Origin: an uncultured Erythrobacter sp.
GTDB taxonomy: Bacteria; Pseudomonadota; Alphaproteobacteria; Sphingomonadales; Sphingomonadaceae
Assembly: GCA_947499095.1 (NCBI GenBank)
Contig: CANMMR010000001.1
Span: 186,001-250,000, forward strand
Direction of reading: 5' to 3'
Length of the DNA stretch: 64,000 nt
Shown here: one piece after another, positions 57,955 to 63,837 of the stretch
How the letters are laid out: every line of letters starts with the position of its first letter
Numbering within the stretch: position 1 is the stretch's first letter
Position numbers and translations under genes: made by a program
The notes under the pieces: generated by a model
Seen by the model: only the letters and a program-made list of their open reading frames with translations
Database searches by the model: none
Told to the model about the DNA's origin: nothing

Positions 57955-58701
57955 TCAGCCGAACGCCTTCCACAGCGCGGCGAGCGCCGCCCCGCCCAGC
58001 ACCGCGCCCACACAAATGCGCCAAGTGCGATCCTCTATCCGGCCCGAAACCCTGTTGCCGAGCCAGTTGCCGAACAGGATGAGGGGGAACAGAAGGGCGG
58101 CGAGCAGCGCCAGCGACCAGTCCATTACGCCGACAACCGCCGCCGTGGCGAGGCCGAAGACCGGCGCGAACGTAAAAATTAGCATCATTGACGCCTTGGC
58201 CACCTCGCGCGGGATGTCACGGCCAACGTAATAGGGGACGACAGGCGGACCGGGCATTCCGGCATATCCGGTCATGAGACCGCTGAGCGCGCCGACGCCC
58301 CCTGTCGTCGCCATGTGATGATCCACCGCACCACGCCGGGGCAGCAGGATGGCGAAAAAAGCCGTCAGCGCGATCAGCGCAATGACGACACGGGCGATGG
58401 CGGGTGTGGTCACGCTGAGGAGATAAAAACCAACAGGTGTCGTCACCGCGACGAACCCGATGATGATCCAGGCCGATCTTTCGGCATTGCGCACCAGTCT
58501 TCGAATTTCCGACAAGCCGATGAAGACCGACAGGAAATTGGCCAGCAGCACCGCATGGACCGGCGTCAGCGCCAGCGCGAGGATCGGCACGAGCAGGATC
58601 GCCATGCCGAACCCGGTCAGCCCGCGCACGAAGGCCGAGCCGAATGCGGCAACCAGCGCGGCGATGATTGCAGCGGTGCCGTAGCCCGCGAGTGGGTCCA
58701 T
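57955..58701 (-). CDS. TSUP family (TauE/SafE) membrane transporter
   Basis: 248-residue membrane protein with about eight hydrophobic helices and the family's internal repeat: GFGMAILLVPILALAL in the first half and MTGYAGMPGPPVVPYYV in the second. TSUP proteins export sulfite, sulfoacetate or related anions. The ligand is not predictable. It starts seven bases after the thrS stop on the same strand and is probably in the thrS transcript. Confidence 0.9.
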   Translation of the reverse strand: MDPLAGYGTAAIIAALVAAFGSAFVRGLTGFGMAILLVPILALALTPVHAVLLANFLSVFIGLSEIRRLVRNAERSAWIIIGFVAVTTPVGFYLLSVTTPAIARVVIALIALTAFFAILLPRRGAVDHHMATTGGVGALSGLMTGYAGMPGPPVVPYYVGRDIPREVAKASMMLIFTFAPVFGLATAAVVGVMDWSLALLAALLFPLILFGNWLGNRVSGRIEDRTWRICVGAVLGGAALAALWKAFG

Positions 58702-58708
58702 GTGCGAC

Positions 58709-60730
58709 CTAACCCTCGCGCAGGTCGGGCGGCGTCGCTTCGGCCTTGAGCATGGCGATCGCCTCGGCGAGGCTCATCACGCGCTGCTCCTTTTCGCCCA
58801 GCGTGCGGATGGCGACGGTGCCTTCCTCCGCCTCGCGATTGCCGACCACCAGCAGGTGCGGAACCTTGGCGTGGCTGTGCTCGCGCACCTTGTAGTTGAT
58901 CTTCTCGTTGCGAAGATCGCTCTCGACGCGGATGCCCGCCGCTTCCAGCCTGGCTACGGCTTCCTTCGCATAGTCGTCGGCGTCGGAGACGATGGTCGCC
59001 ACCACCGCCTGCACCGGCGCGAGCCACACGGGCAGGCGGCCCGCGAAATGCTCGATCAGAATGCCGATGAAGCGTTCGTAGCTGCCGAAGATCGCGCGGT
59101 GGAGCATGACCGGGCGGTGCTTCTCGCCATCCTCGCCGACATAGCTCGCATCGAGGCGGTCGGGCAGCACGCGGTCGCCCTGGATCGTGCCGACCTGCCA
59201 GGTGCGGCCGATCGCATCGGTGAGGTGCCATTCGAGCTTGGGCGCATAAAAGGCGCCCTCGCCGGGCAGCTCTTCCAGCTTGCCATCGCCTTCGCCCTGC
59301 ATGTCGCTGACCGCGACGGCATCGCGCAATTCCTGCTCCGCCTTGTCCCAATCCTCGTCCGAACCGAACCGCTTTTCGGGGCGCAGGGCGAGCTTGACGT
59401 CGTAGGTGAAGCCGAAGTCGCGATAGACCTGGTCGGCCAGTTCGATGAAGGCCTTCACCTCCTCTACCACCTGCTCTTCCGTGCAGAAGATATGCGCATC
59501 GTCCTGCGTGAACTGGCGCACGCGCATCAGCCCGTGGAGCGCGCCATGCGGTTCGTTGCGGTGGCAGCACCCCATTTCGCCGAGCCGGATCGGCAGGTCA
59601 CGATAGGAGGTGATGCCCTGCTTGAAGACCAGCACATGCGCCGGGCAGTTCATCGGCTTGATCGCCATCCAGTCCGCATCGGGCGCGACGCTGGGGTTGG
59701 CTGGACCATCGCCCAACTCCTCCACCTCGGGCACCATGTCGGGCACGGCGAACATGTTCTCGGCATATTTGCCCCAGTGGCCGGACTGCTCCCACTGGCG
59801 CACGTCCATCAGCTGCGGCGTCTTGATCTCGCGATAGCCGGCCTTGTCCATCTTGCGGCGCATATAGGCCTCCAGCTCGCGCCAGATGCGATAGCCCTTG
59901 GGGTGCCAGAAGACACTGCCATGCGCCTCTTCCTGCAGGTGGAACAGGTCCATCTCGCGGCCCAGCTTGCGGTGGTCGCGCTTGGCAGCTTCTTCCAGCC
60001 TGGTGAGATGCGCGTTGAGCTGCTTCTTGTTCAGCCAGCCGGTGCCGTAAATGCGCGTGAGCTGCGGATTGTTCTGGTCGCCGCGCCAATAAGCACCGGC
60101 AACGCGCGTGAGCTTGAAGGCCTGCGGATCGAGCTTGCCCGTGCTGGCGAGATGGGGCCCGCGGCACATGTCGAGCCAGTCCTCGCCAGACCAATAGACC
60201 GTGAGCTCCTCGTTCTCGGGCAGTTCCTTGGCCCATTCGGCCTTGAAGACCTCGCCTTCGGCCTCCCACTTGTCGATCAATTGCTGGCGGCTCCAGACTT
60301 CGCGGCGCAGCGGCTTGTCGGCCTTGATGATGCGGCGCATTTCCTCCTCGATATCGGGGAGGTCGTCCATACTGAACGGCTCGCGGTCGGCGGGTGCCTT
60401 CACATCGTAATAGAAGCCGTCGTCCGTCGCCGGGCCGAAAGTGATCTGCGTCCCCGGGTAGAGCGACTGGACCGCTTCGGCGAGGACATGGGCGAAATCA
60501 TGCCGCGCCAGTTCGAGCGCGTCTTCCTCGTCGCGGCTCGTAACCAGTGCCAGTTCGGCATCGCCTTCGAATGGCCGGTTGATGTCGCGCAGTTCGCCGT
60601 CCACGCGCGCGGCGATGGCGGCCTTGGCAAGGCCGGGGCCGATCGCAGCAGCGACATCGCCGGGCGTGCTGCCGGGTTCCATCTCGCGCACCGATCCATC
60701 GGGCAGGCTGATCTTGAGCAGTTCCGTCAT
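58709..60730 (-). CDS. thrS: Threonyl-tRNA synthetase
   Basis: 673-residue class II synthetase with the usual domains. The N-terminal TGS domain (about 1-63) and the editing domain ([12 protein letters not shown]) are followed by the catalytic core and the C-terminal anticodon-binding domain. The zinc-site region [11 protein letters not shown] and class II motif [17 protein letters not shown] are present. A threonine-rich leader frame and inverted repeats occupy the upstream gap, so expression probably responds to charged tRNA-Thr. A TSUP transporter gene follows after seven bases. Confidence 0.97.
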
Positions 60731-60747
60731 CGTATCTCGTCCGTCGT

Positions 60748-60854
60748 TTGGCGCGCCATGACACAGGCGCGCGCGCCAATGAAGCGGCGTTTGCGTTATT
60801 TCCGATTTCGAGAGGAACGCCGCGCCACCCGAAACCGGGCAGCGGTGGCTGCGG
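60748..60854 (-). promoter_or_regulatory. Putative attenuator region of thrS
   Basis: Between the leader stop and thrS are three stacked inverted repeats. GCCACC/GGTGGC pairs 60844-60849 with 60824-60829. GCGGCGTT/AACGCCGC pairs 60816-60823 with 60784-60791. TTGGCGCGC/GCGCGCCAA pairs 60771-60779 with 60748-60756, just before the ribosome site. The GGGTGG of the first stem can also pair with the ACC-rich threonine codons, giving alternative folds. No strong U-run follows any stem, so control could act on transcription or translation. Confidence 0.6.
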
Positions 60855-60926
60855 TCAGGCCGCGACCATCCGCCCCCGGAGACCCGGGGTGGTGGTAGTC
60901 GTAGTGGTGAAGCGCAGCTTCGTCAT
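60855..60926 (-). CDS. Threonine-rich leader peptide upstream of thrS
   Basis: A 23-codon frame reading MTKLRF, then seven consecutive threonine codons (ACC ACT ACG ACT ACC ACC ACC), then [10 protein letters not shown] and a stop. Several different threonine codons are used. The ATG has no Shine-Dalgarno but lies seven bases after a good -10 box, so the transcript would start at or next to the ATG (leaderless). This resembles amino-acid attenuator leaders such as thrL. It lies 124 bases upstream of thrS on the same strand. Confidence 0.75.
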
Positions 60927-60933
60927 GGCTGGA

Positions 60934-60962
60934 CAGATAGCGCGGGTGCCTGCGCTTCTCAA
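60934..60962 (-). promoter_or_regulatory. Sigma-70-type promoter of the thrS leader
   Basis: On the minus strand TTGAGA (60957-60962) and TATCTG (60934-60939) are separated by exactly 17 bases. The -35 box overlaps the stop codon of phoD. The expected start point falls at the A of the leader ATG (60926). Confidence 0.7.
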
Positions 60963-62620
60963 GTCGCTTGCAGCTTGCGACTGCCTGCCAGCGTGGTCAT
61001 GCGGTGGGTCGCAGAAATGCCCGCGCCCTTATCGCGCACGCTGGAGAGGAAGCGGAACTCGCTCGAAGCGCTGCCGGGCGTGAGTTCCACCGCCATATAG
61101 CCGCGCCGCGCCGAATCCATCCATTGGAGCTGCGGATTATGGCTGACGATCGCACTCTCCAGCCGGTCCTTCGGAATGAACGACAGATAGCTTTCCAGCC
61201 CCGGCGAGGTCACGCCCTGGACGCCGAATTCGACGCCGACCGATTGCCCCGCATGGTCGAGATCGAAGGCCCAGGCATTGTGCGTGTCGCCGGCGAGGCT
61301 GATGACGTTCGCGTTCGCCTCCAGCGCTGCCCGGAACACACGCTCGCGCGCGGCCGGATAGCCGTCCCACGCATCCATGTTGAGCGGCAGTTCCGCCCGC
61401 CCTGCCATCGCGCCTGCCAGGATGCGCTGGCGGATGAAGTCGGGCAAATCGCCCGGCAAGCCCTCGGTGAGGCCGGGCGCGGTGGAGAGGTTGCCCATCA
61501 GCACCTGCTGCACCAGCACCTGCCACGGCTTGCCCGCCCCGGCAGAGCGCCTCATGCTATCGGCGAGCCACGCCTGCTGCCGCGCGCCGAGCAGTTCGCG
61601 CGAGGCATCGCGATAGTCGCCCTCGCGGAAGGCCGTCAGTGCGGCCAACGCCTCGTCGGCGGAGGTCTGGCCGGTCAGGATATCGCCATAGGAAAACTGC
61701 TCCGCCCGCGCGGTCAGGCGCGTTTCCAGCCGGAACAGCGTGGCGAGATCGCCGATCTCGTAGGCCGCCCAAGGCTCGTCCGAGACGGGCATCCACTCGC
61801 GATAGGCCTTGATCGCCGCTGCCTTCCGCACCGACCATTCGCCTTCGCTGTCGGGCTGGTGGTTCTGGGCGCAGCCTTCCCACGAATCGTTCGCGCTCTC
61901 GTGATCGTCCCAGCCGCTGATCATCGGGTACATCTGGTGGAGGCGGCGCAGATCGGGGTCGCTGCGATAGAGCGCATAGCGGCGGCGGTATTCGTCGAGA
62001 CTGACGATCTCCTTCGCCGGGAACAGCGTACGGCCGGACAAGGCCTCGTCATTCGAGGGATAGGTGCCGGGGCCGTATTCATAGAAATAATCGCCCAGAT
62101 GCAGCGTGCAGTCGAAGGCGTTCGCATCGGCGGCATGGGCATAGGCGTTGAACCAGCCGAAGCCGATGTTGGAGCAGGAGAATACCGCCATGCGGAACCG
62201 CTCGGTCGGGCCTTCGGGCAGTGTCTTCGTGCGGCCGACATCGGACATCGAACCGTCGGGCGCGACGAAGCGGAAGTAATAGAAGCGCGCCGGGGCAAGG
62301 CCGCTTGCGGTCGCCTTGCAGCACCAGTCGTTATCCGCGCTGGCCGTGACCGTGCCGCCCGAAGCGATAGTGGCGAAGTCGGCGCTCTCCGAAAGTTCAT
62401 AGGTCAGCGCCGTGTCCTGCCCGGCGACGAATCGAGTCCACACCAGAACGCCGTTCGCCGCAGGCTCGCCGCTCGCGACTCCATGCGTGAAGCCGCGACC
62501 GGGCACTTGCGCGGCCAGTGGCATGCCGGCGAGGCCCGCGCCGAGCATGCCGCCCTTGATCAGGCTCCGGCGATCGAGCGACGGCAGCTTCGCGGCAACA
62601 GGCGGTTCGGTGGCAATCAT
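60959..62620 (-). CDS. phoD: Alkaline phosphatase D family protein, Tat-exported
   Basis: 553-residue PhoD-type phosphomonoesterase/phosphodiesterase. The N-terminus has a Tat signal (DRRSLIKGGM, then a hydrophobic stretch ending LAAQ). The core shows VASGEP and WTRF of the N-terminal fold, metal-site segments CTLHLGDYFYEYG and SGWDDHESANDSW, and ISLAGDTHNAWAFDL. GAGGAGAAACG precedes this ATG; the frame extends 54 codons upstream but without a signal peptide. A Pho-box-like repeat lies 36 bases upstream. It ends at the promoter of the thrS leader. Confidence 0.93.
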   Translation of the reverse strand: MIATEPPVAAKLPSLDRRSLIKGGMLGAGLAGMPLAAQVPGRGFTHGVASGEPAANGVLVWTRFVAGQDTALTYELSESADFATIASGGTVTASADNDWCCKATASGLAPARFYYFRFVAPDGSMSDVGRTKTLPEGPTERFRMAVFSCSNIGFGWFNAYAHAADANAFDCTLHLGDYFYEYGPGTYPSNDEALSGRTLFPAKEIVSLDEYRRRYALYRSDPDLRRLHQMYPMISGWDDHESANDSWEGCAQNHQPDSEGEWSVRKAAAIKAYREWMPVSDEPWAAYEIGDLATLFRLETRLTARAEQFSYGDILTGQTSADEALAALTAFREGDYRDASRELLGARQQAWLADSMRRSAGAGKPWQVLVQQVLMGNLSTAPGLTEGLPGDLPDFIRQRILAGAMAGRAELPLNMDAWDGYPAARERVFRAALEANANVISLAGDTHNAWAFDLDHAGQSVGVEFGVQGVTSPGLESYLSFIPKDRLESAIVSHNPQLQWMDSARRGYMAVELTPGSASSEFRFLSSVRDKGAGISATHRMTTLAGSRKLQAT

Positions 62621-62655
62621 TCGTTTCTCCTCACTCGCGGTGCTGCCTGCGCCGG

Positions 62656-62673
62656 ATGACCCCTGCATGACAA
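62656..62673 (-). promoter_or_regulatory. Pho-box-like direct repeat upstream of phoD
   Basis: On the minus strand TTGTCAT and GGGTCAT are spaced by four bases (11-base period), as in PhoB sites built from CTGTCAT repeats. The first half matches six of seven consensus positions and the second five of seven. The position before a phosphatase gene supports it, but no clear -10 box follows. Confidence 0.4.
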
Positions 62674-62781
62674 GCCTTTCAACACCGCTGGAAAGGTCGC
62701 ACTCCATATTGGAAAGCGTGCTCGACATAGGCCGCTCTCCATGACAAACAAGCTTTACACCATAGCAAGGGAGCTTGACCA

Positions 62782-62964
62782 ATGAACCGTACTATCCTTT
62801 CCAGTGGCTTCGCCATTGCCATGCTGCTGACCGCGTTCGGCGTGTCCGTGGGCGCAATTGACGCTGCGGTGGGTGAAACGATGCTGATTGTTTTCCCGGC
62901 ACTGGCCATCGCGACGATCCGGCCGCGCAAATGCTGCGCGTCGCTCAAAGGCGTGTTCTCGTGA
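62782..62964 (+). CDS. Small two-helix membrane protein
   Basis: 60 residues with two hydrophobic segments (about 5-26 and 32-46) and a short basic tail. AGGGAG precedes the ATG at good distance. The stop overlaps the GTG start of the next gene (GTGA), which supports real, coupled translation. No family recognised. It is the first gene of a three-gene module ending in an XRE regulator and is divergent from phoD. Confidence 0.65.
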   Translation: MNRTILSSGFAIAMLLTAFGVSVGAIDAAVGETMLIVFPALAIATIRPRKCCASLKGVFS

Positions 62965-63790: not shown

Positions 63791-63837
63791 CCCCTTCGAT
63801 CCCCGAGCATCCACGCGACGGGATCGAAGGGGTTTTT
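63791..63837 (+). terminator. Rho-independent terminator with embedded Shine-Dalgarno
   Basis: A perfect 13-base-pair stem (63791-63803 with 63820-63832) with a 16-base loop and five T residues ends the XRE operon. Its right arm contains GAAGGGG, which lies 12 bases before the next ATG and is the only ribosome-site candidate for that gene. Confidence 0.9.

What the first reader, a model, noticed from the sequence alone, without database searches (positions are those of the whole stretch)
60731..60962. Leaderless threonine-codon attenuator candidate upstream of thrS
Directly seen: TTGAGA-N17-TATCTG, then seven bases, then a 23-codon frame with seven consecutive Thr codons, then three inverted repeats before thrS. 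Known: Thr-rich leaders control thr operons in enterobacteria, E. coli thrS instead uses a tRNA-mimic translational operator, and the trpL leader of Sinorhizobium meliloti starts at its AUG. Inference: ribosome stalling at Thr codons masks the ACC-rich strand and changes pairing of GGGTGG, setting thrS (and the coupled TSUP transporter) to tRNA-Thr charging. I do not recall this arrangement being described for thrS.
Basis: partly seen in the sequence, partly recalled or inferred. Interest (0 to 1): 0.85.

Follow-up and report, generated by a model that had tools for sequence, protein, structure and literature searches.

The report
Threonine-codon attenuator before thrS
In many relatives of Sphingomonas and Erythrobacter a tiny reading frame packed with threonine codons sits before the threonyl-tRNA synthetase gene, and the RNA after it can fold in two rival ways, so ribosomes that run short of charged threonine tRNA probably switch the synthetase gene on.

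Summary
Of 107 thrS upstream regions (111 less four duplicates), 44 carry a short Thr-rich frame, against 1 on the reverse strand and a mean of 0.95 in shuffles. A covariance model finds the element in 143 of 397 sampled family genomes at E<=1e-5 and in no sampled genome outside the family above 30 bits. All 52 strong hits comparable with thrS positions lie upstream of thrS. In 112 of 120 leaders a TA sits 12-14 nt before the start codon, with a conserved -35 and no Shine-Dalgarno, so the leader mRNA is probably leaderless. Segment-swap tests, repeated on 78 held-out sequences, support competing helices: B:C5' with C3':G, against C5':C3' with D:E. Folding with the ribosome at the Thr codons or at the stop codon favours these two states on average, with exceptions that include the window. 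Best explanation: a ribosome-mediated attenuator tuned to Thr-tRNA charging. The weak step is the output: the presumed terminator D:E has a poor U-tract. Nearest relatives are codon-run leaders of other synthetase genes.

The parts
60934..60962 (-). P1 promoter: -35 TTGAGA (60962-60957), 17 nt, -10 TATCTG (60939-60934)
   Evidence: Read. Conserved position: TA at -14 to -12 of the leader start in 112 of 120 leaders, information peaks at -35 to -32 and -13 to -11, no Shine-Dalgarno seen.
60855..60926 (-). Leader [26 protein letters not shown], probably translated from a leaderless mRNA
   Evidence: Thr-rich frame in 44 of 107 thrS upstream regions chosen by ThrS similarity and in 79 of 81 further hits of model R1, which itself contains the leader.
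60888..60908 (-). Seven consecutive Thr codons (regulatory codons)
   Evidence: 120 leaders have on average 6.9 Thr codons, using all four codons ACC/ACT/ACG/ACA (446/184/156/41).
60886..60899 (-). Segment A (3' part of the Thr codons), can pair with B
   Evidence: A:B can pair (-10.3 kcal/mol mean) but shows little covariation: z -0.9, -1.7.
60869..60881 (-). Segment B, core CCGGGGGCGG, inside the leader ORF; pairs with A or with C5'
   Evidence: B:C5' swap test z -2.1, -4.5 (held out).
60837..60847 (-). Segment C5', 5' arm of the central hairpin; alternative partner of B
   Evidence: C5':C3' z -3.4, -5.9; one of its pairs is G-C 18, A-U 9, G-U 7 of 36.
60823..60836 (-). Segment C3' with its loop (GGTTTCGGGTGGCG); pairs with C5' or with G
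   Evidence: C3'-loop:G z -9.0, -11.5.
60816..60823 (-). Segment D (GCGGCGTT), 5' arm of the terminator-like stem
   Evidence: D:E z -7.2, -10.9; best stem of 5-10 bp in each of 40 (which has no chance control).
60802..60815 (-). Segment G (CCTCTCGAAATCGG), partner of the C3' loop
60784..60791 (-). Segment E (AACGCCGC), 3' arm of the terminator-like stem, followed by a weak U-tract TTCATT (60783-60778)
   Evidence: the 8 nt from CTT on hold only 2 T in 21 of 40 sequences.
60755..60784 (-). CTTCAT-N18-CATGGC: conserved element with fixed spacing before thrS, possibly a second, thrS-proximal promoter P2
   Evidence: The alignment columns of CTT and TGTG are 19 nt apart in 40 of 40 leader sequences; a similarly spaced CTTGC[C/G]...GGCATA, GCAAAG or CATAAG occurs in 19 of 63 loci without a leader within 420 nt (counted by eye).
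58709..60730 (-). thrS, threonyl-tRNA synthetase, the regulated gene
   Evidence: TIGR00418 641.7 bits, cut-off 383.65; Pfam TGS, tRNA_SAD, tRNA-synt_2b, HGTP_anticodon.
57955..58701 (-). TSUP/TauE-type transporter downstream of thrS, possible co-regulated gene
   Evidence: Pfam TauE 87.1 bits; adjacent to thrS in 34 of 111 loci.

Best explanation
A ribosome-mediated attenuator that sets thrS expression by the charging of tRNA-Thr. P1 makes a leaderless mRNA whose first codons are a 23-aa, Thr-rich leader. When charged tRNA-Thr is plentiful, the ribosome runs to the leader stop codon and covers B; C5' then pairs with C3', leaving D free to pair with E, a terminator-like stem, and thrS stays low. 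When charged tRNA-Thr is scarce, the ribosome stalls on the Thr run; B is free and pairs with C5', C3' is released and pairs with G, and this traps D in the loop so that D:E forms late or not at all and transcription continues into thrS. Shown here: the conserved Thr leader, its promoter spacing, covariation of the helices, and predicted folding in the two ribosome positions. Inferred: the exact transcription start, ribosome stalling, mutual exclusion of C3':G and D:E in time, and that D:E stops transcription.
For: Thr-specific leader far above chance. 143 of 397 family genomes at E<=1e-5; all 52 such matches in the 149 genomes also searched for thrS lie upstream of thrS, 49 directly and 3 with about 570-590 nt between (compared by eye). 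Leaderless promoter spacing. Swap test: C3'-loop:G, D:E, C5':C3' and B:C5' beat swapped partners in the training set (40) and in 78 held-out sequences, while ten non-predicted pairs among the same segments stay between z -1.0 and +3.0. Simulated stall, before E is made: B:C5' 6.6 and C3'-loop:G 7.6 expected pairs, with C3'-loop:G above C5':C3' in 36 of 40; simulated stop: C5':C3' 5.9, above C3'-loop:G in 35 of 40, and D:E 5.0 once E is made (means of 40). Column counts for A:B, C5':C3' and D:E: 92.5% of cells paired, 34 double-change cells and covariation score 0.218, each reached by 0 of 500 shuffles. Precedent for synthetase attenuators in Alphaproteobacteria: cysS uORFC-8-2 (section 24 of PMC8632094).
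Against: The U-tract after D:E is poor: 2 T in 8 nt in 21 of 40, 5 or more in only 2 of 40. The terminator scan finds nothing, though it only accepts loops of 3-8 nt. At equilibrium with E present, D:E and C3'-loop:G are mixed in the stalled state (2.8 and 2.5 pairs), and in the window D:E wins (5.9 against 0.0), so the switch must be kinetic. In the window C3'-loop:G also forms in the stop state before E is made (7.6 pairs against 1.8 for C5':C3'), as in 4 other sequences; D:E has under 2 expected pairs in the stop state in 11 of 40. A:B shows little covariation, and in the training set B:C5' (z -2.1) is hardly stronger than two pairs I had not proposed, B:Fb and E:Fa (-1.9 each). In one search two measures are unremarkable: pairs with a double change (7, reached by 24 of 500 shuffles) and further pair types (19, by 198 of 500). 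Accessibility of the thrS ribosome site does not change, so if D:E does not terminate, no other output on thrS is seen. A thrS-proximal promoter would bypass the attenuator. Swap z-scores are inflated by relatedness, though the control pairs suffer the same.
Confidence: 0.72

Rival explanations
1. The same Thr sensor acts on translation or RNA stability rather than by transcription termination: D:E blocks ribosome access or marks the transcript for decay.
For: Poor U-tract after D:E. In six loci (L016, L031, L150, L163, L165, L195) the leader precedes a different gene, and by reading, D:E abuts or overlaps a Shine-Dalgarno-like sequence just before its ATG with no U-tract.
Against: For thrS the ribosome site is equally accessible in both states (mean unpaired probability 0.47 in each; more open on stalling by over 0.1 in 2 of 40, less open in 1 of 40). 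In the five other loci scored, site accessibility differs little at equilibrium and in L016 and L165 is slightly lower on stalling, the wrong way (L163 was not scored).
Confidence: 0.15
2. C3'-loop:G and D:E form together as a pseudoknot, a fixed or ligand-bound structure, and the Thr leader gates its folding.
For: Both crossing helices covary strongly, and the strand order C3'-D-G-E is that of an H-type pseudoknot.
Against: C5':C3' competes with C3'-loop:G and also covaries, which fits a switch better; nested folding in the stop state already makes C5':C3' and D:E on average. Pseudoknots were not modelled.
Confidence: 0.06
3. The leader peptide or the short leader RNA has a job in trans, as reported for peTrpL and rnTrpL of Sinorhizobium meliloti, and thrS control is secondary.
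For: The C-terminal part (RGRSVAR-like) is conserved; trans roles of peTrpL and rnTrpL are in print (passages of PMC7298713, and PMC10117765).
Against: The conserved C-terminal codons contain segment B (CCGGGGGCGG), whose pairing explains their conservation; the element stays upstream of thrS in 52 of 52 compared genomes.
Confidence: 0.03
4. Chance or an ordinary GC-rich intergenic region.
For: The single-sequence fold is weak (z -1.70); one genome of the same genus lacks a match (G305).
Confidence: 0.01

Closest known systems
uORFC-8-2 motif before cysS in Rhodobacterales (PMC8632094, section 24 read)
   Same: Alphaproteobacterial aminoacyl-tRNA synthetase gene; short uORF with cognate codons; presumed ribosome stalling; in the section read it is proposed from conservation.
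   Different: Two tandem Cys codons; two prominent stems and a U-run terminator; different order. Here a Thr run, a chain of five helices and a weak U-tract.
Caulobacter trpS small leader CDS (PMC4117421, passages read)
   Same: Leader CDS before a synthetase gene in an alphaproteobacterium, found with ribosome profiling.
   Different: Trp enzyme; no attenuator structure is given in the passages read.
Sinorhizobium meliloti trpL attenuator (PMC7298713 and PMC10117765, passages read)
   Same: Leaderless leader mRNA starting at the AUG, codon run, alternative structures.
   Different: Controls the biosynthesis gene trpE(G), not a synthetase; its RNA and peptide also act in trans.
E. coli pheST attenuator and his leader (recalled, no paper read)
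   Same: pheST: codon-run leader of a synthetase. his: chain of competing helices.
   Different: Canonical U-run terminators (recalled); here the terminator arm D is trapped in a loop by a crossing helix instead of being paired directly.
E. coli thrS translational operator (recalled; the one passage seen in PMC2965389 only says that the enzyme regulates its own expression)
   Same: Same target gene, autoregulatory purpose.
   Different: There the enzyme binds tRNA-like hairpins by the ribosome site (recalled); here a codon-run leader.

Membership tests
Ribosome-mediated transcription attenuators with a codon-run leader | Short upstream ORF rich in the cognate codon | tested here: met
Ribosome-mediated transcription attenuators with a codon-run leader | Downstream gene belongs to the metabolism of the same amino acid | tested here: met
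   thrS; 49 of 52 compared matches directly upstream, 3 with about 570-590 nt between.
Ribosome-mediated transcription attenuators with a codon-run leader | Conserved mutually exclusive RNA helices, one set overlapping the ORF | tested here: met
   B lies inside the ORF. Mutual exclusion of C3':G and D:E is inferred from strand order.
Ribosome-mediated transcription attenuators with a codon-run leader | Intrinsic terminator: stem followed by a U-run | tested here: inconclusive
   Stem D:E found in each of 40 and covarying; U-run weak.
Ribosome-mediated transcription attenuators with a codon-run leader | Readthrough rises when the charged tRNA falls | not testable with these tools
   Needs an experiment.
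uORFC-8-2 (cysS) | Tandem Cys codons before cysS with a U-run terminator | tested here: not met
   Thr codons before thrS.
T-box leaders, the enterobacterial Thr operon leader (that Rfam holds both is recalled), and any other Rfam 15 family | Match to the family model at the gathering score | tested here: not met
   No match in the window; in 60720-60980 at E<=5 only RF02424, 18.5 bits against a gathering score of 70 (E 0.03).
E. coli-type thrS translational operator | ThrRS-binding tRNA-like hairpins controlling the thrS ribosome site | not tested
   No such model or binding test was run; predicted accessibility of the thrS site is the same in both states.

The most novel reading that the evidence does not exclude
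A portable Thr-tRNA sensor with a two-step RNA relay that can drive different outputs: transcription into thrS in most of the family members that carry it, and, in a sublineage, translation of an exonuclease-like gene placed between the leader and thrS, where the last stem covers or abuts the ribosome-binding site instead of ending in a U-tract. The relay works by topology: a helix crossing over the terminator arm traps it in a loop.
Probability: 0.25. Interest if true: 0.75.

Novelty: new variant of a known kind. Interest (0 to 1): 0.6.

Why it matters
thrS is an essential gene, and its known controls (recalled) are a tRNA-mimic operator in E. coli and T-boxes in Firmicutes. A Thr-codon attenuator spread over dozens of genera would be a third, independent solution. 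Together with the cysS and trpS leaders it suggests that alphaproteobacteria often control synthetases by ribosome position, here starting from a leaderless mRNA. The crossing-helix relay is a specific, easily tested mechanism, and the sublineage with another gene behind the leader offers a natural comparison of outputs.

Tried and rejected
Chance or low complexity: rejected. Known RNA family: none at the gathering score. Leader peptide as a known protein family: no hit up to E 1 in NCBIfam or Pfam. Control of thrS translation by site occlusion: no predicted difference. A tRNA-Thr anticodon mimic in the TGTG loop before thrS: considered by eye and dropped, because the U before the anticodon-like triplet is not conserved and a similar spacing occurs in genomes without the leader, which fits a promoter better; the arms of that inverted repeat do covary modestly (z -3.4), so an RNA role is not excluded. 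RNAalifold alone on A1 gave only 12 pairs and no D:E, probably because E is misaligned there.

Mends and rows dropped: one search overlooked loci lying on the other strand (37 of 111) and is replaced (48 of 111). Three cut ends computed (L006, L025, L040) were too short and were lengthened by hand. Of the 44 distinct leader loci, four (L014 degenerate, L038 lacking D to E, L083 and L094 divergent) were left out of A1; A2 and model R1 used 36 of the 40 rows of A1 (L027, L037, L043, L044 left out). From the 30 loci I used 21 as held-out (9 came from genomes already in the training set), plus 60 stretches picked by hand from further down its list; 3 duplicates of training rows were then removed, leaving 78 of 81. 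Held-out rows are relatives of training rows. D:E and C5':C3' are part of model R1, so their columns in the held-out alignment lean towards them; C3'-loop:G and B:C5' are not part of it. Thr content is partly selected for, since the frame finder asks for 4 Thr in 8. The tree holds the window twice (L001, L002).

Full report
What is there. On the minus strand, the region 60962-60731 holds TTGAGA, 17 nt, TATCTG, 7 nt, and a 23-codon frame [23 protein letters not shown] (60926-60855 with its stop), followed by thrS at 60730. The upstream neighbour is a PhoD-like phosphatase gene (ORF 60959-62782), and the -35 box overlaps its stop codon. The downstream neighbour is a TSUP/TauE transporter (57955-58701). 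The most similar ThrS among the named loci is that of Qipengyuania sp. XHP0207, 97% identical (L101).

Is it more than chance? I collected thrS upstream regions by ThrS similarity alone. 48 of 111 loci carry a Thr-rich short frame. After removing four duplicates the count is 44 of 107, against 1 of 107 on the reverse strand and a mean of 0.95 (maximum 2) in 20 dinucleotide-shuffled sets. The loose criterion also catches Arg-rich (35) and Ala-rich (24) frames, as GC-rich DNA will. With at least 5 in 8 residues and an ATG/GTG start, Thr gives 39 of 107 and no other amino acid more than 5. The frame finder looked at 420 nt; in two further loci (L016, L031) the leader lies farther upstream.

How far does it reach? 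A covariance model built from 36 sequences (R1) matches 157 of 397 family genomes at E<=0.01. Of these, 143 are at E<=1e-5; the other 14 are weak, and the three whose places I compared with thrS (G008, G039, G106) are not at thrS. The family is unnamed in that tool; named loci with the leader belong to Erythrobacteraceae, Sphingomonadaceae, Sphingopyxidaceae and Blastomonadaceae as labelled. Of 385 genomes sampled across the class, 17 match at E<=0.01; the four above 31 bits are all in this family, and the other 13 score 30 bits or less. In 147 genomes of the order, 31 match, and the only one from another family scores 25.6 bits. These scans of over 40 genomes use stricter filters that can lose weak matches. 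In the window's own genome there is one match. I compared by eye: all 52 strong matches in the 149 shared genomes lie upstream of thrS on its strand, 49 directly and 3 (G006, G059, G100) about 570-590 nt away. On a ThrS tree of 108 rows the label needs 11 changes against 35.3 when shuffled; 40 of 46 rows of the clade that holds the window carry the leader (the window counted twice), and 7 carriers lie outside it. That fits an old element with repeated loss, but transfer is not excluded. One genome of the same genus (G305) has no match.

Leaderless start. In 120 non-redundant leaders, information peaks at -35 to -32 and at -13 to -11 relative to the leader start. In 112 of 120 a TA dinucleotide sits at -14 to -12. 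No Shine-Dalgarno is seen between the -10 box and the start, and position -1 is C in 94 of 120. With a -10 box ending about 8 nt before the start codon, transcription should begin at or within a base or two of the AUG. This is inferred from spacing; no 5' end has been mapped. The Thr codons use all four ACN codons (446 ACC, 184 ACT, 156 ACG, 41 ACA).

The RNA. I named these segments: A (the last Thr codons), B (CCGGGGGCGG in the ORF), C5' and C3' (the two arms of a central hairpin, the C3' side including its loop), D, G and E. In each of 40 sequences a best stem D:E of 5-10 bp was found, with variants such as GGCGTTT/AAACGCC, GGTGTC/GACACC and GGCATC/GATGCC (a best-stem search without a chance control). 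To test pairing without depending on one alignment of pairs, I compared duplex energies of native segment pairs with pairs swapped between genomes. In the training set (40): C3'-loop:G z -9.0, D:E -7.2, C5':C3' -3.4, B:C5' -2.1, A:B -0.9; ten non-predicted pairs among these segments lay between -0.6 and +3.0; three more tests with segments of the element before thrS gave Fa:Fb -3.4, E:Fa -1.9 and B:Fb -1.9. In 78 held-out sequences: -11.5, -10.9, -5.9, -4.5 and -1.7; ten non-predicted pairs lay between -1.0 and +1.9. Relatedness inflates such z-scores, but it does so for the controls as well. Column counts on A2 for A:B, C5':C3' and D:E give 92.5% paired cells, 34 double-change cells and a covariation score of 0.218, each reached by 0 of 500 shuffles; the number of pairs with a double change (7) is reached by 24 of 500 and the number of further pair types (19) by 198 of 500.

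The switch. I folded the RNA with the ribosome either on the Thr run (B free) or at the leader stop codon (taken to cover B and about 8 nt beyond the stop). Mean expected pairs over 40 sequences: stalled, before E is transcribed, B:C5' 6.6, C3'-loop:G 7.6, C5':C3' 0.7; at stop, C5':C3' 5.9 and C3'-loop:G 1.2 before E, and with E present C5':C3' 6.1 and D:E 5.0. C3'-loop:G exceeds C5':C3' in 36 of 40 in the stalled state before E (not in L007, L009, L018, L068), and C5':C3' exceeds C3'-loop:G in 35 of 40 at stop before E (not in the window, L012, L013, L020, L101). D:E has under 2 expected pairs at stop in 11 of 40. On average this is the behaviour expected of an attenuator with an added relay. 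The last step in the stalled state is not settled by equilibrium folding: with E present, C3'-loop:G has 2.5 and D:E 2.8 pairs, and in the window D:E wins (5.9 against 0.0). So antitermination must be kinetic, or the two helices may coexist as a pseudoknot, which was not modelled.

The output. D:E is followed by CTT and a poor U-tract: 2 T in 8 nt in 21 of 40, 3 in 9, 4 in 8, 5 in one and 6 in one. So it is not a textbook terminator. The thrS ribosome site is equally accessible in both states, which argues against direct translational control. I therefore favour transcription attenuation at D:E, perhaps helped by other factors, with this as the least secure step.

A second gene behind the same leader. 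In L016, L031, L150, L163, L165 and L195 the leader is followed, 158-163 nt after its start in the five measured, by another gene. In L016 and L031, where it was read whole, it encodes 168 aa with weak, below-cut-off similarity to the Rv2179c-like exonuclease family (17.6 and 12.9 bits against 27; L031 also has a below-cut-off CH-domain hit of 15.4 bits), and thrS starts 55 and 70 nt after it. By reading, D:E there abuts or overlaps a Shine-Dalgarno-like sequence just before that gene and has no U-tract. Predicted site accessibility differed little between states in the five loci scored, and in two it was slightly lower on stalling, so a translational output is a hypothesis.

A possible second promoter. 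Between E and thrS, the alignment columns of CTT and TGTG are 19 nt apart in 40 of 40 leader sequences (not every row has exactly these letters), and 19 of 63 loci without a leader within 420 nt have CTTGCC or CTTGCG followed at nearly the same distance by GGCATA, GCAAAG or CATAAG (counted by eye). I read this as a thrS-proximal promoter, closer to consensus where the leader is absent. It is not proven, and the flanking arms covary modestly (z -3.4).

What is known. Eight literature searches showed me no title or abstract start that describes a Thr-codon leader before thrS. I saw listings only, five of them cut (13 of 14, 20 of 21, 20 of 25, 20 of 58 and 20 of 22 papers listed), and the library lacks most subscription papers, so this is not proof of absence. 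Close precedents seen: the cysS uORFC-8-2 motif of Rhodobacterales (section 24 of PMC8632094, and passages), a small leader CDS before trpS in Caulobacter (passages of PMC4117421), and the leaderless trpL of S. meliloti (passages of PMC7298713 and PMC10117765). PMC11109978 has no occurrence of the six terms I looked for. In PMC2965389 and PMC4833913 I saw passages only, none about a Thr leader. pheST, the his leader, T-boxes and the E. coli thrS operator are from memory.

Verdict. It is a new variant of a known kind: a codon-run attenuator of a synthetase, with a probable leaderless start, a crossing-helix relay and an unusual terminator.

Noticed in passing
window 60784-60755 (-); thrS upstream regions without the leader: Two short motifs at fixed spacing just before thrS (columns of CTT and TGTG 19 nt apart in 40 of 40 leader sequences; CTTGC[C/G]...GGCATA, GCAAAG or CATAAG in 19 of 63 loci without a leader within 420 nt), possibly a thrS-proximal promoter.
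   Followed up: partly
L016, L031, L150, L163, L165, L195: The Thr leader precedes a different gene (168 aa in L016 and L031, weakly similar to Rv2179c-like exonucleases) with the last stem next to its ribosome site; in L016 and L031 thrS follows it.
   Followed up: partly
L008 and L011: In these near relatives no Thr leader is found within 420 nt while the TGCCATGG element before thrS remains; in L008 a TATCTC box stands close to it.
   Followed up: no
window 57955-58701 (-): A TSUP/TauE transporter follows thrS directly; this neighbourhood recurs in 34 of 111 loci, with and without the leader.
   Followed up: partly
window 63791-63837: Inverted repeat CCCCTTCGATCCC...GGGATCGAAGGGG followed by TTTTT, a textbook terminator-like site seen by eye; a contrast to the weak U-tract after D:E.
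   Followed up: no
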